NCBI GenBank assembly: GCA_035310145.1
Contig: DATGEL010000078.1
Location: 1 to 64,000 of the forward strand
Direction: 5' to 3'
Source of the DNA: Dehalococcoidia bacterium
Lineage (GTDB): Bacteria; Chloroflexota; Dehalococcoidia; CAUJGQ01
Length of the DNA stretch: 64,000 nucleotides
The notes under the pieces were generated by a model. The model searched no databases, had not been told where the DNA came from, and saw only the letters and a program-made list of their open reading frames with translations. How positions within the stretch are numbered: the first letter of the stretch is position 1; each line of letters starts with the position of its first letter. Below are positions 38,061 through 48,467 of the stretch, piece by piece. The position numbers were made by a program, and so were the translations under genes.

Positions 38061-38993
38061 CTACGCCGTGGCCGCGGCCTCCTTCGGCGCGAACTCGTTG
38101 CGCAGGCCCTGCGCGAGCGTCTGCGGCACGACCCGTGCGAGTTCATCTACGGTCCACATATCGCCGGGCGCGAAGATCGTGCGCTCGGGCACCGGCTCTG
38201 AGTAGAGCGATACCTGGTTGCCGCGCACCATGAAGGTGCGTCCGTTGATGTTCTGCGCCTCATCCGTGGCGAGATAGACAACCATCGGCGCCACCGCCTC
38301 GGGTTTCAGCTCGGCCAGCGTGTTGGAGCCGGCGCGGGTGACGCCCGCCGCGGCCGAGCGCCGCGCCGCCTCGGCCACCTCCGGACTGAGCGTGAGGCGT
38401 GTACCGGCGGTCGGGCGGATGGCGTTGCAGGTGGCGCCGTAGCGGCCGAGGTCACGCGCCACCGTGCGTGTCAGGCCGACGATCCCCTCTTTGGCCGCGC
38501 TGTAGTTCGCCTGGCCCATGTTGCCGAGGCCGGAGGTGGACGAGGTGTTGATGATGCGGCCCGATCGCTGCTGGCGGAAGATCACGCCGGCCGCCTTGAT
38601 CGTGGTGAAGTGGCCCTTCAGATGCACGTCGACGACCGCGTCCCACTCTTCTTCGGACATGTTGAAGACCATGCGGTCGCGCAGGATGCCGGCGTTGTTG
38701 ACGAGGATGTCGAGCCGCCCGAACGTGTCGAGCGCCGTCTTCACCATGCTCTCGCCGCCCTGCATCTCCGCGACGTTGGCGTAGTTGGCGACGGCGCGAC
38801 CGCCGGCGGCCTTGATCTCGGCCACCACCTGGTCGGCGGGCCCGCCGTCGTGCCCCGTGCCGTCCACGTTGCCGCCCAGGTCGTTCACGACGACCGCGGC
38901 GCCCTCCGCCGCCAGCAGCATTGCCTCCGCGCGGCCGATCCCGCGCCCCGCGCCCGTGACAATCGCGACCTTGCCCGCAAGCCTGTTCCCCAT
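38061..38993 (-). CDS. Short-chain dehydrogenase/reductase, peroxisomal MFE-2-like
   Basis: A 310-residue NAD(P)-dependent SDR resembling the dehydrogenase part of multifunctional enzyme type 2, which oxidises 3-hydroxyacyl-CoA. Seen: cofactor motif TGAGRGIGRAEAMLLAAEG, VNDLGGNVDGTG (typical of the MFE-2 group), NNAGILRD, catalytic TSSTSG and YSAAKEG, and a C-terminal extension beyond the usual 250 residues (FMVRGNQVSLYSEP). ATG 38993 has GGAAAGGAAAC upstream. It is 143 bp downstream of the DUF35 gene on the same strand and fits as the 3-hydroxyacyl-CoA step of the neighbouring cluster. Confidence 0.9.
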   Translation of the reverse strand: MGNRLAGKVAIVTGAGRGIGRAEAMLLAAEGAAVVVNDLGGNVDGTGHDGGPADQVVAEIKAAGGRAVANYANVAEMQGGESMVKTALDTFGRLDILVNNAGILRDRMVFNMSEEEWDAVVDVHLKGHFTTIKAAGVIFRQQRSGRIINTSSTSGLGNMGQANYSAAKEGIVGLTRTVARDLGRYGATCNAIRPTAGTRLTLSPEVAEAARRSAAAGVTRAGSNTLAELKPEAVAPMVVYLATDEAQNINGRTFMVRGNQVSLYSEPVPERTIFAPGDMWTVDELARVVPQTLAQGLRNEFAPKEAAATA

Positions 38994-39136: not shown

Positions 39137-39550
39137 TCAGGCGCTCGCGGCCGGGCGGAAGCGGGGGATCGTGATCTCGTCCGTCGCCTGCTCGAAGGTC
39201 ACCTCGACCGCCAGCCCTTCGCGAAGCGCGTCGTTCTCAATGCCGACGATGTTGGTGTAGAGTCGTGGACCTTCTTCCAGCTCCACCAGCGCGACGTTGT
39301 AGGGCAGCTCGTCCTTGAAACCTGCGTAGTAGAGCTGGTGAAAGACCGTCCACGACCAGATGCGCCCTCGGCCCGAGAGCAGTTCCCAGCTCGCTTCGGG
39401 CGAGAGGCAGCGCGTGCAGGTCGGGCCCGGTGGAAAGCGCAGGTGGCCGCAACCGGCGCAGCGCTGCATGCGCAGCTCATGCTGCTGTGCGGCCTCCCAG
39501 AACGGCCGGCTCCAGACATCGGGCTCAGGCAGCGGTTTCGCGTAGGTCAT
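39137..39550 (-). CDS. DUF35/OB-fold zinc-ribbon protein, partner of the thiolase-like enzyme
   Basis: A 137-residue protein with an N-terminal rubredoxin-like zinc ribbon (Cys31, Cys34, Cys45, Cys48: CAGCGH and CTRC) and a C-terminal OB fold (about 60-130, YNVALVELEEGPRLYTNIVG). DUF35 proteins act as obligatory partners of SCP2-type thiolases, hydratases or HMG-CoA synthases, feeding or binding the acyl-CoA. It starts six bases after the thiolase-like stop, so a heteromeric complex of the two is very likely. Confidence 0.9.
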   Translation of the reverse strand: MTYAKPLPEPDVWSRPFWEAAQQHELRMQRCAGCGHLRFPPGPTCTRCLSPEASWELLSGRGRIWSWTVFHQLYYAGFKDELPYNVALVELEEGPRLYTNIVGIENDALREGLAVEVTFEQATDEITIPRFRPAASA

Positions 39551-39555
39551 CGGCT

Positions 39556-40662
39556 TCACCGCGTGTAGATGATCGAGACGCTGCAGGGCGTGGCGCAGAG
39601 AAACTGCGCGACGTTGCAGCCGGCCACCTGGCGCGGCCCGCATTCGCCGCGCACCTGGCGCACCGCCTCGACGTTCAAGCCCCAGCCCTGCATGTAGCTC
39701 TCGGAGAGATGGCCGCCCGAAGTGTTGGCCGGCAGGGCGCCGCTCAGCCGCAGCCTGCCGTTTTCCACGAAGCGGCCGCCTTCGCCCTGCGCGCAGAAGC
39801 CGAAGCCCTCCAGAGAGAAAACCACGGTGGGCGTGAAGTTGTCGTAGATCTGCAGCACGTCGACGGCCTCGCGGCCGAGGCCAGCCATCGCATACACCCG
39901 CTCGGCGCACTGCTGCATCGCGCCGAACCAGAAGTCGTCCGGGCAGGTGCTGGCGGCGCGGTAGTCGTCGGCGCGGGCCATGCCGGCGATGTAGACCGGG
40001 GGCTTGCGCAGATCCCGCGCCCGCTCGGCGCTGGTCAGGATCAGCGCCACACCGCCGTCGTTGATCAGGCAGTAGTCGAACAGCCCCAGCGGCTCGGCGA
40101 TGTAGCGGGCGTTGCGGTGATCTTCCAGCGAGATCGGCCGCTTCATCACGGCGTTGGGGTTGAGCAGCGCGTGTTCACGGAAGGTAACGGCGATCTGGCC
40201 GAGCTGCTCGGTGGTGCTGCCGTAGCGCAGCATGTGCTTACGCCACAGCAGCGCGTGCTGCGCGCCGGGAGAGGTCATCCCCCACGGCGCCCAGAAGCTC
40301 GGGTCGCCGCCGTAGTAGACGCGGCGCGAGCGGCCGTTGTTGCCGTAGACCAGCGCCACGGTGCTCGCCATGCCGCAGGCGATCGCCATCACCGCCGCCT
40401 CGATCGAGATGCCGCTCATCCGCCCTTCGGCGGGGAACTGGGCGCCCCAGCGCGGCGAGATGCCGGTCATTTCGCCGAAGCGGGCGTAGTGCGGCACGCG
40501 GTTGACGACGAGGCCGTCGATCTCGTTCGCGCGCAGGCCGGCGTCGTCCAGCGCGTTGCGAAGCGCCTCGGCGGCGAGGCCGTTGGCGTCGCTCTCGGGA
40601 AAGTTTCCGAAGCGGCTGCTGCCGACGCCGACCACGGCCACCCGCCGCGACAGCTCGCTCAC
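39556..40662 (-). CDS. Thiolase-fold lipid-transfer-like protein without the nucleophilic Cys
   Basis: A 368-residue thiolase-superfamily protein of the SCP2/Ltp type. Seen: VAVVGVGSSRFGNFPESDANGLAAEALRNAL region at the start, NDGGVALILTSAERARDL, LQIYDNFTPTVVFSLEGFGF and the C-terminal SGGHLSESYMQGWGLNVEAVRQVRGECG. The CxS/TG segment that carries the acyl-accepting Cys is replaced by MSGISIEAAVMAIACG, so ordinary thiolysis is unlikely. Relatives such as Ltp2 use tyrosines for retro-aldol cleavage with a DUF35 partner. Starts with GTG overlapping the upstream CoA-transferase stop. Confidence 0.88.
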   Translation of the reverse strand: MSELSRRVAVVGVGSSRFGNFPESDANGLAAEALRNALDDAGLRANEIDGLVVNRVPHYARFGEMTGISPRWGAQFPAEGRMSGISIEAAVMAIACGMASTVALVYGNNGRSRRVYYGGDPSFWAPWGMTSPGAQHALLWRKHMLRYGSTTEQLGQIAVTFREHALLNPNAVMKRPISLEDHRNARYIAEPLGLFDYCLINDGGVALILTSAERARDLRKPPVYIAGMARADDYRAASTCPDDFWFGAMQQCAERVYAMAGLGREAVDVLQIYDNFTPTVVFSLEGFGFCAQGEGGRFVENGRLRLSGALPANTSGGHLSESYMQGWGLNVEAVRQVRGECGPRQVAGCNVAQFLCATPCSVSIIYTR

Positions 40663-41828
40663 GGCCGCGCCTCGCTCGACGCGATCTCGCGCAGGATCTC
40701 GGCGGTGTGCTCACCGAGACGTGGCGCAGGGCGGCGAATCGAGGCAGGCGTCTCCGAAAACTCCCAGGGCGGCGCGAGCACGCGCAGCGGCCCGATGCCG
40801 GGCTGCTCGATCTCCTGCACCATGCCCAGGTGCTGCACCTGCGGCAGCGCGACGAGCTGCGCGTAGTCGTTCATCGGGAAACAGGTGCCGCCGAGGCGCT
40901 CCACAATCGCGGTCACCTGCGCCGTGGTGAAGGCGGCGAAGGCCCGCTCCCAGAGATGCTTGACCTCGTGCGCGTGGCGGCCGGTGCCGCCCGCCGTGTC
41001 CCGCTCAAGCAGCGGGTAGAGCGGATCGTCCCGCACCCACTCCATGTCCAGCTCGCGCAGCAACGCGTCGAAGCGCTCGCGCTCCATGCGCGCCAGCGAG
41101 AAGAAGATCGCCCCGTCCTTGCAGCGGTAGCCTTGGTCCGGCGGCTTGACGTAGCTGTCGAGGTGGAAGCCCCACCACTCGTCGGGATTGGAGAGAGCGA
41201 CCCAGAGCGTGGAGCGCATCGCCAGCATGCTGCCGAACAGCGAGACGTCGATGCGCTGTCCGAGGCCGCTCTGCTCGCGTTCGAGCAGCGCGGCGCAGAT
41301 CGCCTGCACGGCATAGTTGGCGGCGTACATGCTGGCGACGTCCGTGCCCAGCCGCACCGGCTCCTCGCCGATATGCCCGAGCGAGGACGTGGCCTCGGAG
41401 AGCAATTGCGCCGGCAGCTCGCCCGCCGGCCGGTTCGCCCATGGCCCGCGGTCGCCGTAGCCGGATATTTGACAGCAGACCAGCCGCTGATTGAAGGCCG
41501 CCATCGCGTCATAGCCGAGTTCGGGAGCCGGCAGACGGTTCGCATCGATCACGGCCACATCCGCATTCGCGAGCAGCCCGCGCGCTGACTCGATCCCGCC
41601 CGGCTTGGCCAGATCGAGGACCACGCCGCGCTTGTTGCGGTTCAGGCTGAGGAAGACGGCGCTTGTATCGCCCCGCAGCGGCGGACCCCAGCCGCGGGCG
41701 CGGTCACCCGCCGGCGGCTCGATCTTGATGACATCTGCTCCGGCATCGCCCAACGCCATCGCGCAGTATGGCCCGGCCACGCCCTCGGCGAGCTCGACCA
41801 CGCGATAGCCGTCCAGCGGCCCGCTCAT
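40659..41828 (-). CDS. Class III (CaiB/BaiF) CoA-transferase subunit, catalytic Asp position lost
   Basis: A 389-residue class III CoA-transferase-fold protein: VVELAEGVAGPYCAMALGDAGADVIKIEPP, NRNKRGVVLDL, ISGYGDRGPWANRPAGE and YAANYAVQAICAALLEREQSGLGQRIDVSL. Counting back from the invariant TGxGQ-type motif, the site of the catalytic aspartate is Ser in SMYAANY; the nearest Asp is three residues earlier. Its start overlaps the stop of the next CoA-transferase gene (ATGA) and its stop overlaps the thiolase-like start. It resembles the N-terminal half of the divergent fused protein and is probably the non-catalytic subunit of a heteromer. Confidence 0.88.
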   Translation of the reverse strand: MSGPLDGYRVVELAEGVAGPYCAMALGDAGADVIKIEPPAGDRARGWGPPLRGDTSAVFLSLNRNKRGVVLDLAKPGGIESARGLLANADVAVIDANRLPAPELGYDAMAAFNQRLVCCQISGYGDRGPWANRPAGELPAQLLSEATSSLGHIGEEPVRLGTDVASMYAANYAVQAICAALLEREQSGLGQRIDVSLFGSMLAMRSTLWVALSNPDEWWGFHLDSYVKPPDQGYRCKDGAIFFSLARMERERFDALLRELDMEWVRDDPLYPLLERDTAGGTGRHAHEVKHLWERAFAAFTTAQVTAIVERLGGTCFPMNDYAQLVALPQVQHLGMVQEIEQPGIGPLRVLAPPWEFSETPASIRRPAPRLGEHTAEILREIASSEARP

Positions 41829-43018
41829 GACGAGCCCGCCTGGGCGCCGGCCGGCGCGGCGTTGAGCTTGCGCTCCAGCTCGTCCAAGATCTCGCCGGTG
41901 TGCTCGCCGGGCATGGGCGTGCCGCGCCAGGCTGCCGGCGTGCGGGAGAAGTGCCAGGGCGGCCCGCCGGTCCAGACGCGCCCCCAGGCCGAGGTCTCGA
42001 CCTCGAGCAAATACTCGTTCTCGACCGACTGGCGATGCTGGCGCAACTGCTCGAAACGCAGCGGATAGCCGCAGGGCACGCCGGCGTGGGCCAGCTTCAT
42101 CATCCAGTAGAACTGCGGCTTTGCACGGAAAACCGGCTGCAGCAGCGCCGCCAGATCGTCGCGATGTCGCACACGCTCGGCGTTCGTGGCGAAGCGGGGG
42201 TCGGCGGCCAGCTCCGGCCGCTCGATCGCGGCGCAGAAGGCCCGCCACTCGTCCTCGCTCGTGACGGAGACGCCGAGCCACTGCTGATCTTCGCAGAGAA
42301 AGCACTGGTCGGGCGCGGTGGCGTATGCCGCGCTGCCAAGCGGCACGTGCAGTGCGCCCGTCGCCAGGTACTCGGCCAGCCGCGCCGTTTGCAGCGCCGC
42401 GGCCGCGCGAATCATCGGCACTTCGACCTTCTGACCACGGCCGGTGCGTCGTCGCGCCAGCAATGCCATGAGGATCGCCTGCGCCGCGTAGTTGCCGGTC
42501 GTCGCGTCCATCTGCGTGAAATGCCGGTAGATTTCGCGCTCGCCGCCGCGCGGACCGTTTGTGGACCAGAAGCCGCTGACGTACTGCATCTGCGTGTCGG
42601 CGCCGGGGCGCTCGGCCATCGGGCCGCTTTCGCCCCAGCCGGTGACCGAGCAGTAGACCAGGCGCGGATTGATCGCGCGCACCGTCTCATAGCCGAGACC
42701 AAGGCGATCTCCCACACCGGGGCGCATGTTGATCAGGAAGGCATCGCAGGTTTGCAGCAGTTCGTACGCGGTGGCGCGGTCGCGCGTGGCCTTGAGGTCG
42801 AGGAAGAGGCCGCGCTTGTTCATGTTCCAGGTGATGTAGCCGATCGAGGTGCCGTCGATCGTTGGCGGCACGCCGGCGCCAAGCGACGACCAGAGCACCC
42901 CCGGCTGCTCGATGTGGATCACGTCGGCGCCCATGCTGCCGAGCTGCATCGAGGCCCACGGCCCGACCATCCACATCGTCAGGTCGAAGATGCGCAGGCC
43001 GGCCAGCGGTCCGGGCAT
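41825..43018 (-). CDS. Class III (CaiB/BaiF) CoA-transferase subunit with catalytic Asp
   Basis: A 397-residue CoA-transferase, first gene of the minus-strand operon. Seen: LRIFDLTMWMVGPWASMQLGSMGADVIHIEQP, NMNKRGLFLDLKATRD, GWGESGPMAERPGADTQM, and HFTQMDATTGNYAAQAILMALLARRR with the aspartate in the canonical place before RTGRGQ. It resembles the C-terminal half of the fused protein at 43.2 kb (DLT...VGP start). Likely moves CoA from a donor such as succinyl-CoA to an organic acid. The ATG lies inside a dispersed repeat that also supplies the GGGTGAGG ribosome binding site. Confidence 0.9.
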   Translation of the reverse strand: MPGPLAGLRIFDLTMWMVGPWASMQLGSMGADVIHIEQPGVLWSSLGAGVPPTIDGTSIGYITWNMNKRGLFLDLKATRDRATAYELLQTCDAFLINMRPGVGDRLGLGYETVRAINPRLVYCSVTGWGESGPMAERPGADTQMQYVSGFWSTNGPRGGEREIYRHFTQMDATTGNYAAQAILMALLARRRTGRGQKVEVPMIRAAAALQTARLAEYLATGALHVPLGSAAYATAPDQCFLCEDQQWLGVSVTSEDEWRAFCAAIERPELAADPRFATNAERVRHRDDLAALLQPVFRAKPQFYWMMKLAHAGVPCGYPLRFEQLRQHRQSVENEYLLEVETSAWGRVWTGGPPWHFSRTPAAWRGTPMPGEHTGEILDELERKLNAAPAGAQAGSS

Positions 43019-43043
43019 GGCCTCACCCCCGGCCCCTCTCCAT
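43015..43043 (-). repeat. Dispersed 29-bp repeat, copy 1, overlapping a start codon
   Basis: Read on the minus strand this 29-bp block (ATGGAGAGGGGC, then CGGGGGTGAGGCCATGC) matches 26 of 29 positions of the block at 47169-47197 in opposite orientation. Its last bases are the ATG (43018..43016) of the CoA-transferase gene and its GGTGAGG is that gene's ribosome binding site. Further repeat-like sequence, GGAGAGAGGGTAGTTAGGGCCGGGA, follows at 43073-43097. Confidence 0.6.
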
Positions 43044-43188
43044 GACAATCCATCGCGCGAAGCGCGAACTTCCGGAGAGAGGGTAGTTAGGGCCGGGACG
43101 GGCCCGGCGGCCTCAACGTAGGCAAGCGCTGCTGCACTGTCAACGCGCGCGGCGGCGTAGACTGGGCCGCGAGGCGCGGGAGGCGAGC

Positions 43189-45726
43189 ATGAGGGAAGAG
43201 GGGCTGGTGCTAAGCGATCTCACGGTGCTGGAGCTGAGCGAGGGCATCGCCGGGCCGTACTGCGGCAAGTTGCTGGCTGCGCTGGGCGCGCGAGTGATCA
43301 AGATCGAGCCTCCAGGCGGCGACCGTGCCCGTTTGCTGGCCCCCTTCGCCGGCGACGAGCCGCACCCGGAGAAGAGCGGCCTCTTCCTCTACCTCAATAT
43401 GGCGAAGGAGAGCATCGTCCTCGATCTGACTCGTGCTCCGGACCGGACCCAGTTTCGGCGACTCGCCGCCGAGGCCGACATCATCATCGAGGGCTTCATG
43501 CCGGGCACGCTCGCGGCTCTGGAACTCGACTTCGCCGCGCTTGCGGGAGAGAACCCGCGGATGATCCTCTGCTCGATCACGCGGTTCGGGCAGGACGGTC
43601 CGTACCGCGACTATTTGGCTACCGAAATCACCGCGCAGGCGCTGGGCGGCCTGCTGTACACGATCGGGTTGCCCGATCGCGAGCCGCTGAAGATCGGCGG
43701 CAGCCCCGCCCTGTGCAACGCAGGTGGCGCCGCCTTCAGTGCGATCATGGCGGCGTTGTGGCAGCGCGACCGCACCGGCGCAGGCCAGGCGATCGATATC
43801 TCGCTGCAGGAGGCGACGGCGATCACGCAAATTCACGCCAGCATCGAGGCCACCTGGCAGGGCACGAACCTGCAGCGACGGCCGAGCGTGTTGCTGGAGG
43901 CGAAGGACGGCTGGGCCTCGGTCGGGTTGGAGATGGGCGTCGCGGCCGAGACCTGGCCGCGCGTCTGCGCGATGCTGGGCCGGCCGGAGCTGGCCGCCGA
44001 TCCGCGCTTCGCCAGCTCGGCGGCGCGGCGCGAGAACCGTGAAGCTGTAGCCGAGATCGTCGCGGACTTGGTTCGCGGCCAGCCGAAGGAAGCGATCTAC
44101 CACGAGCTGCAGAGCCTGCGCTCGATCGCCGGCTACGTGGCGACCGCGGCCGACCTGCACGCCTCCGCCCAGCTCGCGGCCCGCGGCTTCTTCCAGCAAA
44201 TCGAGCACCCCGTCGCCGGCAGCGCCCGCTATCCCGGCCTGCCCTTCCGCATCGGGGAGATGCCCGCGGTCACCGGCCGCGCCCCGCTGCTCGGCGAGCA
44301 CGCGCAAGCGACAACGCAACGCGCCGACAAGGGCATGCCCGCGAAGCCACCTTCGACGCCCGACGCCCTGGGCCCTACGCCCTCGACGCCGCCCCTCGAA
44401 GGCGTCCGCATCCTCGATCTTACCCAGGTCGCGGTGGGGCCGTACGCGACGCTTTTGCTCGCCGGCCTCGGCGCCGAGGTGATCAAGGTCGAATCCAATC
44501 GCCGTCCGGACATCAGCCGCGGCCCGGTGCATCCCGAAGGCGAGACGCAGCTCAAGCAGTATCCGCACGGCGAGCCGGGCGAGCGGCCGTGGAACCGCGC
44601 CGCCTACTTCAACCAGCGCAACCGCGGCAAGCTCGGCATCACCCTCGACCTCTCGGACGAACGCGGCAAGGATCTCTGCAAGCGGCTGGCGGCCTGCTGC
44701 GACGCCGTCGCCGAAAACTTCCGCGCCTCGGTGATGGAGCGACAGGGACTCGGCTGGGACGAGCTGCGAGCGGTGAACCCACGCCTCGTCTATCTCAAGC
44801 TCAGCAGCCAGGGCGACAGCGGACCGGAGCGCGACTACGGTTCCCTGGGCTCGACGCTGGAGCAGACCGGCGGCCTCGTCTCCGTGACCGGCTACCGCGA
44901 CGGGCCGCCGCTGATGACCAACGGCACCTACCCGGACCCGGTCGCCGGCGTGCTGGCCGTGGGCGCGCTGATCGCCGGCCTGCGCCGAGCGCGGCAGACC
45001 GGCGAGGGACAGTTCGTCGACTTCTCGCAGCGCGAGGCGACGATCGGCCTCTTCGGCGAGGCGATGATGGACTTCGCGCTCAACGGCCGGGTGCAAGGAC
45101 CGATCGGCAATCGCCATCCGCAGTTCGCGCCGCAGGGCGTCTACCCGTGTTCAGGGAACAGGGGAGCTGGAAGCTCGGGCAGGGATGCCAGAGGCGCTTC
45201 GCCTGGTGACGGTCAACCGAGCGGGCCGGATGATTGGATTGCGATCTCGATAGAGGACGACGGGCAGTGGGCGCGGCTGCAGCAGGCGATGGGCAATCCC
45301 GCCTGGACGCGGGGCGAACGCTTGACGACCGCCGCGGGCCGCAGGGCCCTGCACGACGAGCTCGACTCCGCGATCTCCGCGTGGACGGCGGGCTACGACA
45401 AGCACGCACTGATGCACCTCCTGCAGCGGCACGGCGTGCCTGCCGGTGCGGTGCTCACCGGCGTGCAACTGCTGAACGACGCGCAGCTCAAGGCCCGCGG
45501 CTGGTGGGAGGAACTGATCCCGACTGAGGTTGGGGAGCCGCACCGCTTCGTCTCGGCGCCCTGGCGGCTCGCTGCCGCGCCGCGCCGGCCCAGCACGCCG
45601 GCGCCATGCCTTGGTGAACACAACGCCCGCGTCTACCGCGGTCTGCTCGGCCTCAGCGCCGACGAGTACGCGGACCTTCAAGCCGCCGGCGTGATCAGCA
45701 TCGAGCCGCTGTGGCTGCGCGCCTGA
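43189..45726 (+). CDS. Fused two-domain class III CoA-transferase
   Basis: An 845-residue protein made of two CaiB/BaiF CoA-transferase units in tandem. Unit 1 (about 8-385) starts VLELSEGIAGPYCGKLLAAL and has Leu175 where the catalytic Asp should be (SPALCNAGG), with no Asp nearby. Unit 2 (about 402-835) starts VRILDLTQVAVGPYATLLLA and keeps Asp583 (TYPDPVAG) at the correct distance from QTGEGQ. A Pro-rich linker joins them. Unit 2 also carries an extra stretch of about 24 Gly/Ser/Arg-rich residues after VYPCSG. It is divergent from the split pair and appears to be its fused counterpart. GGGAGG precedes the ATG. Confidence 0.9.
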   Translation: MREEGLVLSDLTVLELSEGIAGPYCGKLLAALGARVIKIEPPGGDRARLLAPFAGDEPHPEKSGLFLYLNMAKESIVLDLTRAPDRTQFRRLAAEADIIIEGFMPGTLAALELDFAALAGENPRMILCSITRFGQDGPYRDYLATEITAQALGGLLYTIGLPDREPLKIGGSPALCNAGGAAFSAIMAALWQRDRTGAGQAIDISLQEATAITQIHASIEATWQGTNLQRRPSVLLEAKDGWASVGLEMGVAAETWPRVCAMLGRPELAADPRFASSAARRENREAVAEIVADLVRGQPKEAIYHELQSLRSIAGYVATAADLHASAQLAARGFFQQIEHPVAGSARYPGLPFRIGEMPAVTGRAPLLGEHAQATTQRADKGMPAKPPSTPDALGPTPSTPPLEGVRILDLTQVAVGPYATLLLAGLGAEVIKVESNRRPDISRGPVHPEGETQLKQYPHGEPGERPWNRAAYFNQRNRGKLGITLDLSDERGKDLCKRLAACCDAVAENFRASVMERQGLGWDELRAVNPRLVYLKLSSQGDSGPERDYGSLGSTLEQTGGLVSVTGYRDGPPLMTNGTYPDPVAGVLAVGALIAGLRRARQTGEGQFVDFSQREATIGLFGEAMMDFALNGRVQGPIGNRHPQFAPQGVYPCSGNRGAGSSGRDARGASPGDGQPSGPDDWIAISIEDDGQWARLQQAMGNPAWTRGERLTTAAGRRALHDELDSAISAWTAGYDKHALMHLLQRHGVPAGAVLTGVQLLNDAQLKARGWWEELIPTEVGEPHRFVSAPWRLAAAPRRPSTPAPCLGEHNARVYRGLLGLSADEYADLQAAGVISIEPLWLRA

Positions 45727-45733
45727 AGCCGCG

Positions 45734-45763
45734 TTGACAGGCGCGCCGCCGGGGCGGTACACC
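45734..45763 (+). promoter_or_regulatory. Predicted promoter of the acyl-CoA dehydrogenase genes
   Basis: TTGACA (45734-45739) and TACACC (45758-45763) are 18 bp apart, starting eight bases after the fused CoA-transferase stop. The leader to the ATG at 45821 is about 50 bases and holds GGAG at 45811-45814. Confidence 0.55.
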
Positions 45764-45820
45764 TCGGATGGCAGATCGATCGTCCACGCCGAACGATTGC
45801 AAGCGAAGACGGAGCCGCGC

Positions 45821-47053
45821 ATGGACTTCGAAGTGACCTACAGCGAGGAGCAGCTGCGCTTCCGCGCCGAGGTGCGCGCCTGGTTTGAGGCGAACGTGCC
45901 GCCCGGCCTCACGCGCGAGCCGAAGGACGCCGACGAGTCGCTGCAGCTCTACCTCCAGCGCCGCGAGCTGGGCCGCAAGCTCGGCGCCAAGGGCTGGCTC
46001 TTCCCCCACGCGCCGGCCGAGCACGGCGGCGGCGGCCTCGATGTGGACCACACCATCATCCTGGAAGAGGAAGCCGACCGGCTGGACCTCTCGCTGCCGC
46101 CCTTCTACGACACCGGCGGCACCCTCGGCGCGCCAAGCATCCTCGTCTGGGGCTCCGAGGACCAGAAGCAGCGCTTCCTGCCGCCGATCTACAAGGGCGA
46201 GGTGCGCGTCTGGCAGTTGCTCAGCGAACCAGGCGCGGGCTCGGATCTCGCCGGCGTGCGCACGCAGGCGGTGCGCGACGGCGACGAGTACGTGATCAAC
46301 GGCCAGAAGATCTTCGTCGGCAGCGCCAATGGCACCGACTGGATGTGGACGATCTGCTGCACCGATCCCGGCGGCCAGCGCCACCAGAACCTGAGCTGGT
46401 TCATGATCGATGCCAACCTGCCCGGCATCACGGTGCAGCCGATGGACCTGATGGGCGGCGGCGGCGAGGGCGGCTCCGACATGGGCCACAAGAACACCGT
46501 CTTCTTCGACGACGTGCGCGTGCCGGCCTCGTGTCTGGTGGGCGGTGAGAACAACGGCTGGCGCGTCGCCAGCACGCACCTGGAGCTGGAGCACGGCGGC
46601 GGTGGCCGCATCGGCCGCAACCGATTGTGGGAGCGCCTGCTCGCTTACTGCCAGACCACCATGCGCGACGGCGCGCCGCTGACCGAAGACCGGGACGTGC
46701 GTGACCTGCTGGCCGAGATCTACATCAAGGGCGAGGTCACACGGCTCTTCGGCCTGCGCAACTTCTGGCTGACCTACGCGAAGCAGCCCAGGTCGTATGA
46801 GGGGCCGCAGCTCTCGCTGCACCGCAAGATGGCCGGCCTGTGGATGACCGGCGCGATTCTCGAGGCCGTCGGCCCCGCCGCGCTCACCGACGACGAGGTC
46901 TACGGCTCGCCCGGCGGCTTTCTGGAGTCGCAGCAACGCAACGGCATCGTCGCGGTGCATCCGGGCGGCACGGCCGACATCCAGCGCGTGAGTATGGCGC
47001 GGCGCATCGGCATTGGCCGCAGCACACGCGAGCTGGCGGGCAGCGTGTCGTGA
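45821..47053 (+). CDS. Acyl-CoA dehydrogenase
   Basis: A 410-residue FAD-dependent acyl-CoA dehydrogenase: N-terminal helical domain (YSEEQLRFRAEVRAWFEANVP), LLSEPGAGSDLAGVRT and INGQKIFVGSANGTDWMW in the beta domain, and a C-terminal domain ending VHPGGTADIQRVSMARRIGIGR. The neighbouring 374-residue homologue on the same strand suggests an alpha2-beta2 enzyme like those for steroid side chains, but each could act alone. Preceded by its own promoter and followed by the repeat-rich gap. Confidence 0.92.
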   Translation: MDFEVTYSEEQLRFRAEVRAWFEANVPPGLTREPKDADESLQLYLQRRELGRKLGAKGWLFPHAPAEHGGGGLDVDHTIILEEEADRLDLSLPPFYDTGGTLGAPSILVWGSEDQKQRFLPPIYKGEVRVWQLLSEPGAGSDLAGVRTQAVRDGDEYVINGQKIFVGSANGTDWMWTICCTDPGGQRHQNLSWFMIDANLPGITVQPMDLMGGGGEGGSDMGHKNTVFFDDVRVPASCLVGGENNGWRVASTHLELEHGGGGRIGRNRLWERLLAYCQTTMRDGAPLTEDRDVRDLLAEIYIKGEVTRLFGLRNFWLTYAKQPRSYEGPQLSLHRKMAGLWMTGAILEAVGPAALTDDEVYGSPGGFLESQQRNGIVAVHPGGTADIQRVSMARRIGIGRSTRELAGSVS

Positions 47054-47342
47054 GACCGTGGCTCTCGTCCCCTGGTTCATTCATCTTGCCCCAGTCCTGG
47101 GGGAAGGGGAGATCGATTGGCGGGAGCGCGGGGCGAAGGCCGGGTTAGGCGTCTCTCCTCTCCATCCCATGGAGGGGGGCCAGGGGTGAGGCCATGCGCC
47201 CGCCGGTGGCCGCCTGGAATCGCCCCGACCCCGAACCTTCGAACCGAAGCACCCCTCCCTCTCCCCTGGATTGGGAGAGTCAGAAGGAATCCTCGGCGGT
47301 GGGTGAGGGCCGGGCGGGCCGGCGCCAGTACAGGAGCCGACG
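47054..47342. other. Repeat-rich intergenic region between two acyl-CoA dehydrogenase genes
   Basis: The longest gene-free stretch in the window. It holds the copy-2 dispersed repeat (47169-47197), a hairpin CTCTCCC-N7-GGGAGAG around 47260-47280, G-rich runs such as GGGGGAAGGGG near 47098-47108, and GGGTGAGGGCC at 47302-47312. No credible reading frame was found. The ribosome binding site of the next gene is weak. Confidence 0.5.
47169..47197 (+). repeat. Dispersed 29-bp repeat, copy 2
   Basis: ATGGAGGGGGGC followed by CAGGGGTGAGGCCATGC, 26 of 29 bases identical to the block at 43015-43043 in opposite orientation. Like copy 1 it ends in a GGTGAGGCC-ATG arrangement, but here no known gene starts on that ATG. 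Confidence 0.6.
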
Positions 47343-48467
47343 ATGGACCTTTCCCTGACGGAGAGCCAGCAGATGCTCAGGCAGGTGGCGCGCAACTTCA
47401 TCGAGCGCGAGGCGCCGAAGGACGCGATCACCGCGCTGCAGGGCTCGGAGACCGGTTTCAGACCGGAGATCTGGGAGCAGGCGGCTGCGCTCGGCTGGCT
47501 CGGCCTGCTGATCCCGGCCGAGTACGGCGGCGCCGGCGGCTCGTTCACCGATGCGGCCGTGCTCTATGAGGAGCTGGGACGCGGGCCGGTGCCGGGGCCG
47601 TTCTTCAGCTCCGCGGTGCTTGGCGCCCTCACGGTGCTCGAGGCTGGCAACGAGGCGCAGAAGCGGGCCATCCTGCCCGCGGTCGCCGCGGGCCGCCAGG
47701 TGCTTACCGTGGCGATCACGGAGCCGAACAACTCGTGGGGGCCGCGCGGCGTGCAGCTCACGGCCCAGCGCCGCGACGGCGGCTACGTGCTGAACGGCGC
47801 CAAGCTGTTCGTCAGCGATGCGCTGGCAGCCACGCAGATCGTCGTCGCCGTGCGCACCGGGCCTCAAGAACGTGACATCAGCCTGTTGCTGGTAGATGCG
47901 AGCGCGCAGGGGGTGTCGTCGCGCGTGCTTTCCGGTTTCGTCGGCTGGCAGTGCGAGGTCGCGTTCCAGGATGTGCAGGCGCCCGCGTCTGCCCTGCTAG
48001 GCGGCGCGGAGAACGCCGGCTGGGCGGCGCTGGAGCGCGCGCTGGAAAAGGCGCTGCCCGTGCTCTGCGCCTACGAAGTCGGCGGCTCGCAGGCCGTCTT
48101 CGACATGTCGGTGGCGTACAGCCAGACGCGCGTGCAGTTCGGCGTGCCGATCGGCCGCTTCCAGCGCGTGCAGGACCACATCATCCGCCTGGTGAATCAC
48201 CTCGATGCGGCGCGCTGGACGACGTACCACGCCCTCTGGAAGCTGGACACGGGCCGTCCCGCCGCGGCCGACGTGCATATGGCCAAGGCCGTGGCCAGCG
48301 AAGCCTACTTCGAGGCCTGCAACGCTGCGCACGAGGTGCACGCGGGCGTCGGCTCGGCGCGGGAGTACGGCCTCGTCGCGCACACGCAGATGTCGCGCAC
48401 GTTGTTCCATTTCCTCGGCGATCCGAAGTGGCACAAGCGGCAGATGGCGGACGCGCTGCACTGGTGA
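47343..48467 (+). CDS. Acyl-CoA dehydrogenase, divergent type
   Basis: A 374-residue acyl-CoA dehydrogenase-fold protein: LSLTESQQMLRQVARNFIEREAP, LGLLIPAEYGGAGGSFTDAAV, AITEPNNSWGPRGVQLTAQ and NGAKLFVSDALAATQIVV in the beta domain (shortened relative to SEPGAGSD enzymes), and HEVHAGVGSAREYGLVAHTQ in the C-terminal domain. The altered SEPG and terminal motifs resemble the smaller subunits of heteromeric FadE pairs, so it may partner the enzyme encoded at 45821. Confidence 0.87.
   Translation: MDLSLTESQQMLRQVARNFIEREAPKDAITALQGSETGFRPEIWEQAAALGWLGLLIPAEYGGAGGSFTDAAVLYEELGRGPVPGPFFSSAVLGALTVLEAGNEAQKRAILPAVAAGRQVLTVAITEPNNSWGPRGVQLTAQRRDGGYVLNGAKLFVSDALAATQIVVAVRTGPQERDISLLLVDASAQGVSSRVLSGFVGWQCEVAFQDVQAPASALLGGAENAGWAALERALEKALPVLCAYEVGGSQAVFDMSVAYSQTRVQFGVPIGRFQRVQDHIIRLVNHLDAARWTTYHALWKLDTGRPAAADVHMAKAVASEAYFEACNAAHEVHAGVGSAREYGLVAHTQMSRTLFHFLGDPKWHKRQMADALHW

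What the first reader, a model, noticed from the sequence alone, without database searches (positions are those of the whole stretch)
40659..45726. The same CoA-transferase heteromer appears once as two genes and once as a fusion, each with one dead and one live half
Two overlapping minus-strand genes and one divergent plus-strand gene encode four CaiB/BaiF units. Counting back from the TGxGQ-type motif, the catalytic aspartate is present in the 41825-43018 protein (QMDATTGNY) and in unit 2 of the fusion (Asp583), but is Ser in the 40659-41828 protein and Leu175 in unit 1 of the fusion. The inactive units also share an ELxEGxAGPYC start and the active ones a DLT...VGP start. Heteromeric class III transferases are known (SmtAB of Chloroflexus, BbsEF of Thauera); a split pair and a fused counterpart facing each other suggests duplication and two related acids being activated.
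Basis: partly seen in the sequence, partly recalled or inferred. Interest (0 to 1): 0.62.

Follow-up and report, generated by a model that had tools for sequence, protein, structure and literature searches.

The report
Two unrelated half-dead CoA-transferase pairs
Next to each other in an uncultured Chloroflexota genome sit two enzymes built from one catalytically dead and one live half, but they are not copies of one another: the fused one is a BbsEF-type enzyme of which this genome has about thirty versions, and the two-gene one belongs to a different branch that probably evolved its dead half independently.

Summary
In detail: of four class III CoA-transferase units, the 41825-43018 protein and fusion unit 2 (Asp583) carry the catalytic Asp; the 40659-41828 protein (Ser166) and fusion unit 1 (Leu175) do not. 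The column is checked against E. coli Frc Asp169 and BbsF Asp178, the residue of PDB 9fol's CoA adduct. The interpretation 'same heteromer, once split, once fused' fails. The fusion is BbsEF-type: unit 1 falls in a clade of 33 dead units with BbsE, unit 2 in a clade of 31 live units with BbsF, both with maximal bootstrap support. The split pair lies in another well-supported clade with YfdE and human SUGCT. Joining each split protein to its supposed fused counterpart is rejected (AU p=0.0017; 1.6e-8). SmtAB is no precedent: both Chloroflexus subunits keep Asp. The genome has ~98 such units. All 16 readable fusions are dead-then-live, and 15 of 16 tandem gene pairs are one dead, one live. In 31 orthologues of the dead split subunit Asp is never present, yet dN/dS is 0.06-0.10 and a 27-residue block is almost invariant. 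A single ancient origin of all dead halves is disfavoured, not rejected (p=0.15-0.21). Ordinary chemistry; the recurrent pseudoenzyme subunit is the interesting part.

The parts
41825..43018 (-). live subunit of the split pair (P2, 397 aa; catalytic Asp171 in QMDATTGNY); first gene of the minus-strand run
   Evidence: Asp in 29/29 orthologues
40659..41828 (-). dead subunit of the split pair (P1, 389 aa; Ser166 at the catalytic position, invariant Asp163 three residues before it); overlaps P2 by 4 bp (ATGA)
   Evidence: purifying selection
41139..41219 (-). codons of P1 residues 204-230 (MRSTLWVALSNPDEWWGFHLDSYVKPP), the most conserved block of the dead subunit, in the segment leading into the small domain
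   Evidence: low-confidence when modelled as a monomer
43189..45726 (+). two-domain class III CoA-transferase (845 aa): dead BbsE-like unit 1 fused to live BbsF-like unit 2
43198..44340 (+). unit 1 (about aa 4-384), Leu175 at the catalytic position
44383..45690 (+). unit 2 (about aa 399-834), Asp583 = BbsF Asp178
39556..40662 (-). thiolase / lipid-transfer-protein-like gene of the split-pair gene run (4-bp overlap with P1)
39137..39559 (-). DUF35 (ChsH2-type zinc ribbon + OB) partner of the thiolase; weak BbsA similarity
38061..38993 (-). short-chain dehydrogenase, last gene of the run (start codon chosen by me)
45734..47053 (+). acyl-CoA dehydrogenase (PimC-like large) downstream of the fusion (longest ORF; true start probably further in)
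47343..48467 (+). second acyl-CoA dehydrogenase (PimD-like small)

Best explanation
The window holds two different class III CoA-transferases, each built as a dead/live heteromer. (A) The fusion is an intramolecular BbsEF-type heterodimer: N-terminal BbsE-like pseudo-half, C-terminal BbsF-like half whose Asp583 forms the acyl anhydride and CoA-thioester. It is one of about thirty co-evolving BbsE/BbsF-like pairs in this genome, many of them fused. (B) The split pair is a separate heteromer from the branch that contains the Asp-bearing YfdE and SUGCT. P2 (Asp171) is catalytic. P1 has lost the Asp and the NFRPG motif, but keeps an almost invariant segment (res 204-230) leading into its small domain. 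[quoted passage not shown] Each system probably transfers CoA from a donor such as succinyl-CoA to a carboxylic acid that then enters the beta-oxidation enzymes encoded beside it. Shown: sequence, column, trees, orthologue conservation, selection. Inferred: complex formation, one active site per dimer, role of the conserved segment, donor and substrates.
For: Catalytic column. Genome-wide rule: 16/16 readable fusions are dead-then-live and 15/16 tandem pairs are one dead, one live. Clades: dead units with BbsE 100/99, live partners with BbsF 100/100, split pair outside both in a 97/95 clade, kept with 118 rows. AU tests. Mirror-tree correlation of 27 dead/live partners r=0.77, against at most 0.38 in 2000 permutations. 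P1/P2 gene order is kept wherever the contig and the search show both genes; P1 lacks Asp in 31/31 and P2 has it in 29/29. P1 dN/dS 0.06-0.10, P2 0.03-0.05. Fusion model pTM 0.92, best PDB match BbsEF. Active site shared between subunits in the family: PMC9196870.
Against: One origin of all dead halves is disfavoured but not rejected (p=0.214 with 48 rows, 0.153 with 118 rows). Sisterhood of P1 and P2 has weak support (92/75; 61/82). P1 has an invariant Asp163 three residues before the lost Asp, so a shifted nucleophile is not excluded. No complex was modelled, and the P1 monomer model is mediocre (pLDDT 73). Substrate and donor are unknown.
Confidence: 0.75

Rival explanations
1. One reading: one heteromer duplicated in place, kept once as two genes and once as a fusion, so unit 1 = 40659 protein and unit 2 = 41825 protein.
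For: Adjacency; one dead and one live half in each; similar ELxEGxAGPYC start of the two dead units.
Against: Trees and AU tests p=0.0017 and 1.6e-8. The start motif is not kept by the closest relatives of either unit. The two systems also differ in order: live-dead in the pair, dead-live in the fusion.
Confidence: 0.04
2. All dead halves share one ancient origin; P1 is a very divergent BbsE-type subunit that re-paired with, or was pulled towards, a YfdE/SUGCT-like live partner.
For: AU p=0.15-0.21 for P1 + all BbsE-type units; 0.43 for the first 50 residues.
Against: Best tree excludes P1 from the BbsE clade with starred support; log-likelihood 29 units worse with 118 rows; in most 40-residue segments P1 is at least as similar to the YfdE/SUGCT group as to the BbsE group; P2 + whole BbsF clade rejected, p=0.017.
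Confidence: 0.18
3. P1 is not dead: invariant Asp163, one helical turn earlier, is a shifted nucleophile, so both subunits are catalytic.
For: Asp163 is invariant in 18 aligned orthologues while position 166 drifts (S/G/Q/T/A).
Against: Alignment is gap-free from PVR to GQ around position 166; the NFRPG motif is also lost in P1; in all characterised enzymes aligned here the nucleophile is at the column of position 166.
Confidence: 0.08
4. The dead subunits are decaying pseudogenes or annotation chance.
For: Loss of the nucleophile.
Against: No stops in 12 checked orthologues, dN/dS 0.06-0.10; 31 orthologues keep the gene, next to P2 wherever both are seen; partner co-evolution in the BbsE/F type.
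Confidence: 0.02

Closest known systems
BbsEF, succinyl-CoA:(R)-benzylsuccinate CoA-transferase (PDB 9fn0/9fol/9fun)
   Same: Unit 1 groups with BbsE (no Asp), unit 2 with BbsF (Asp178); best PDB match by sequence and fold.
   Different: Fused into one 845-aa chain; substrate unknown; no benzylsuccinate synthase looked for. The split pair is not of this clade.
[quoted passage not shown]
   Same: Tandem domains; in PtmU4 and its homologues the conserved Asp is in the C-terminal domain (PMC6006322). This genome has at least 16 such fusions, and DddD-like proteins were reported in SAR202 (PMC5395668).
   Different: No DddD or PtmU4 sequence could be aligned here; no sign of DMSP or thioacid pathway genes was sought.
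SUGCT / YfdE (single-gene class III CoA-transferases)
   Same: Nearest characterised clade to both split subunits; SUGCT is the best PDB hit of P1 and P2.
   Different: One Asp-bearing gene product each; the split pair has two different subunits, one without Asp.
SmtAB, succinyl-CoA:(S)-malate CoA-transferase of Chloroflexus
   Same: Two adjacent genes for two class III subunits.
   Different: Both subunits keep the Asp and they are each other's sisters in a separate clade: not a dead/live heteromer.

Membership tests
Class III CoA-transferase family (PF02515) | full-length CoA_transf_3 domain | tested here: met
   all four units, E 1e-88 to 1e-187; SUGCT/BbsEF folds
Class III CoA-transferase family (PF02515) | catalytic Asp (Frc Asp169) in each pair or fusion | tested here: met
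   present once per system: in P2 and unit 2; absent from P1 and unit 1
BbsEF-type heteromer (fusion) | one half clades with BbsE and lacks Asp, the other with BbsF and has Asp178 | tested here: met
BbsEF-type heteromer (fusion) | two separate subunits | tested here: not met
   one 845-aa chain here; split in the orthologue of G024, so it is filed as a fused BbsEF-type enzyme, not as BbsEF itself
BbsEF-type heteromer (fusion) | succinyl-CoA:(R)-benzylsuccinate activity | not testable with these tools
   needs assay
BbsEF-type heteromer (split pair) | subunits clade with BbsE and BbsF | tested here: not met
   P2 + BbsF clade p=0.017, P1 + BbsE clade p=0.21
[quoted passage not shown]
   criterion for PtmU4 from PMC6006322
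[quoted passage not shown]
   no reference sequence could be fetched
SmtAB | clades with SmtA/SmtB, Asp in both subunits | tested here: not met
SUGCT/YfdE-type enzyme (split pair) | same clade | tested here: met
   97/95 clade of 25 rows; broader than SUGCT/YfdE alone
SUGCT/YfdE-type enzyme (split pair) | single gene, Asp in the chain | tested here: not met
   two genes, one without Asp

The most novel reading that the evidence does not exclude
Dead/live heteromers of class III CoA-transferases arose several times independently (two changes forced by starred branches, four in the best tree: the BbsE/F clade, the P1/P2 pair, and the fusions L075_4107 and L077_260). In Chloroflexota the pseudoenzyme subunit is a recurrent device for building substrate-specific single-site CoA-transferases, with P1/P2 a new, so far uncharacterised type.
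Probability: 0.55. Interest if true: 0.6.

Novelty: new variant of a known kind. Interest (0 to 1): 0.47.

Why it matters
SAR202-type Chloroflexota are known for huge numbers of CaiB/BaiF genes and are thought to use them on recalcitrant organic matter (PMC5395668). Here the expansion is shown to be in large part one of dead/live pairs, with a simple rule (dead half first, live half second when fused) and at least one lineage that most likely reached the same design separately. Annotation pipelines call every half a CoA-transferase, which overcounts active enzymes by about a third in this genome. It gives a testable system for why enzymes keep a dead partner.

Tried and rejected
Duplication of one heteromer: rejected. 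Internal duplication making the fusion: rejected, p=6e-54. AU tests on the full 98-row tree timed out and were redone on 48 rows. Shared N-terminal motif as evidence of kinship: not diagnostic; segment trees unresolved. The 27-aa insert of unit 2 as a mobile repeat: unique in the genome. Promoter/terminator scan of the divergent gap: nothing. DddD and PtmU4 reference sequences: not found in the plasmid searches. Literature on the BbsEF structure: not in the library.

Full report
OBSERVATION. Alignment with E. coli Frc, YfdE and CaiB (loci L086, L087), human SUGCT and BbsE/BbsF (sequences read off the PDB alignments) puts Ser166 (40659 protein, P1), Asp171 (41825 protein, P2), Leu175 (fusion unit 1) and Asp583 (fusion unit 2) in the column of Frc Asp169. 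The same column is residue 178 of BbsF, and PDB entry 9fol is titled as a D178-CoA adduct of BbsEF, an independent check.

CONTEXT. The window's genome (5.3 Mb, 148 contigs) has 109 PF02515 stretches. The named genomes with close P1 relatives are nearly all Dehalococcoidia or other Chloroflexota MAGs. G024, ranked 'same class' as the window, has a contig of 39,849 bases, the length of the Dehalococcoidia record SHYD01000021.1. I therefore take the window as Dehalococcoidia (inference). CaiB/BaiF expansion in SAR202, with DddD-like members, was reported before (PMC5395668).

GENOME-WIDE RULE. I extracted the units, read the catalytic residue in each and listed their arrangement. Sixteen fusions have both sites readable (two of them cut by contig ends), and all are dead-then-live; three shorter ORFs with a partial first unit (L038, L083, L084) follow the same order. 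Of 16 tandem same-strand gene pairs, 15 are one dead, one live. Twelve of these are dead-first and three are live-first: the window pair, L054 and L061. The exception, L047, has Asp in both genes and is Frc-like. The residue replacing Asp is almost anything: H, E, F, L, G, S, A, W, T, Q, Y.

TREES. In the careful tree of 98 units one clade (100/99) holds 32 dead units including BbsE and fusion unit 1. Another (100/100) holds 30 live units including BbsF and fusion unit 2. P1 and P2 are in neither, but in a 97/95 clade of 25 with YfdE and SUGCT, otherwise almost all Asp-bearing. Adding orthologues, SmtAB and G024 keeps this (118 rows; 33 and 31 units, both 100/100). Two further fusions, L075_4107 (Ser/Asp) and L077_260 (Thr/Asp), also lie outside the BbsE/F clades. 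The dead/live label needs 4 changes in the best tree; starred branches force 2. AU tests on 48 rows: dead split proteins + unit 1 p=0.0017; live split proteins + unit 2 p=1.6e-8; unit 1 + unit 2 p=6e-54; P2 set + BbsF clade p=0.017; P1 set + BbsE clade p=0.21, 0.15 with 118 rows. So 'same heteromer twice' is refuted, while 'one very ancient origin of dead halves' is only disfavoured. P1 and P2 being sisters is suggested (92/75), not shown.

FUSION AND SPLIT. The nearest relative of the fusion found, 53-56% identical, is a pair of separate genes in G024 (L191), again Leu/Asp. So fusion/fission is labile within one orthologous system; on the trees the fused/split state changes at least 4 times among dead units and 8 among live ones. 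Dead and live partners have matching trees (r=0.77, permutation maximum 0.38), as expected for obligate partners.

THE SPLIT PAIR. Of 31 P1 orthologues at 54-67% identity none has Asp (Ser 23, Gly 4, Gln 2, Thr 1, Ala 1), and P2 has Asp in 29/29. P2 lies immediately upstream of P1 wherever both were seen (in L122 and L135 P1 begins at the edge of the stretch and no P2 is seen). dN/dS is 0.06-0.10 for P1 and 0.03-0.05 for P2 (simple Nei-Gojobori counts). In P1 the block 204-230, MRSTLWVALSNPDEWWGFHLDSYVKPP, is almost invariant (15-residue windows at 0.96-0.98 against 0.69 overall), whereas the NFRPG motif, which I take as part of the CoA site, is lost. [quoted passage not shown] The block lies at the passage into the small domain and is predicted with low confidence in a P1 monomer, so a role at the partner's active site is a reasonable inference, not shown. 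Invariant Asp163 keeps a shifted-nucleophile reading alive. The P1 type is rare: 4 of 301 Chloroflexota genomes at E<=1e-90.

STRUCTURE. The fusion is predicted confidently as one body (pLDDT 87.3, pTM 0.92), with BbsEF as the best PDB match. P1 alone is mediocre (pLDDT 73), best match SUGCT. No two-chain model could be made.

NEIGHBOURS AND FUNCTION. P2, P1, thiolase and DUF35 overlap by 4 bp at each junction and are followed by an SDR; the fusion is followed by two acyl-CoA dehydrogenases resembling PimC/PimD and a methylmalonyl-CoA-epimerase-like protein. Thiolase+DUF35 pairs also lie near P1/P2 in many of the other genomes, often on the opposite strand. This resembles the logic of the bbs pathway (CoA transfer, dehydrogenation, hydration, dehydrogenation, thiolysis; PMC10818641). 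I infer two carboxylic-acid activation steps feeding beta-oxidation; substrates are unknown.

PRECEDENTS. BbsEF is the right one for the fusion; PtmU4 shows that two-domain proteins with Asp only in the C-terminal domain are known (PMC6006322). SmtAB is not: the two genes near mct in what I identify as the Chloroflexus aurantiacus genome (L189; contig 5,258,541 bases; smtB/smtA = Caur_0178/0179) both have Asp, as do those of a second genome.

VERDICT. Observation confirmed; 'one dead, one live' confirmed and general; 'same heteromer split and fused' refuted; independent evolution of the split pair likely but not proven.

Noticed in passing
G000, whole genome: About 98 class III CoA-transferase units in a 5.3-Mb genome, roughly a third without the catalytic Asp, almost all paired or fused with a live one.
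   Followed up: yes
L075:4107-6650 and L077:260-2719: Two further dead/live fusions (Ser/Asp, Thr/Asp) that fall outside the BbsE/F clades: possible additional independent origins; orthologues not examined.
   Followed up: partly
window 45154-45235: 27-residue Gly/Ser-rich in-frame insertion in unit 2 of the fusion (aa ~656-682), absent or much shorter in other fusions, unique in the genome, disordered in the model.
   Followed up: partly
window 43021-43105: G+C-rich inverted repeat (CTCACCCCCGGCCCCTCTCC ... GGAGAGAGGG) in the divergent intergenic gap, REP-like by eye.
   Followed up: no
L047:4631-7116: Two adjacent Frc-like genes, both with the Asp: possible SmtAB-like or two-homomer case.
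   Followed up: no
L119:2649-4990 and L091: More distant P1/P2-like pairs (38-44% identical), also one without and one with Asp, so the split-pair family is wider than its orthologues.
   Followed up: partly
window 45734-48467: Tandem acyl-CoA dehydrogenases resembling the PimC/PimD large/small pair; whether one subunit lacks its catalytic base was not checked.
   Followed up: no
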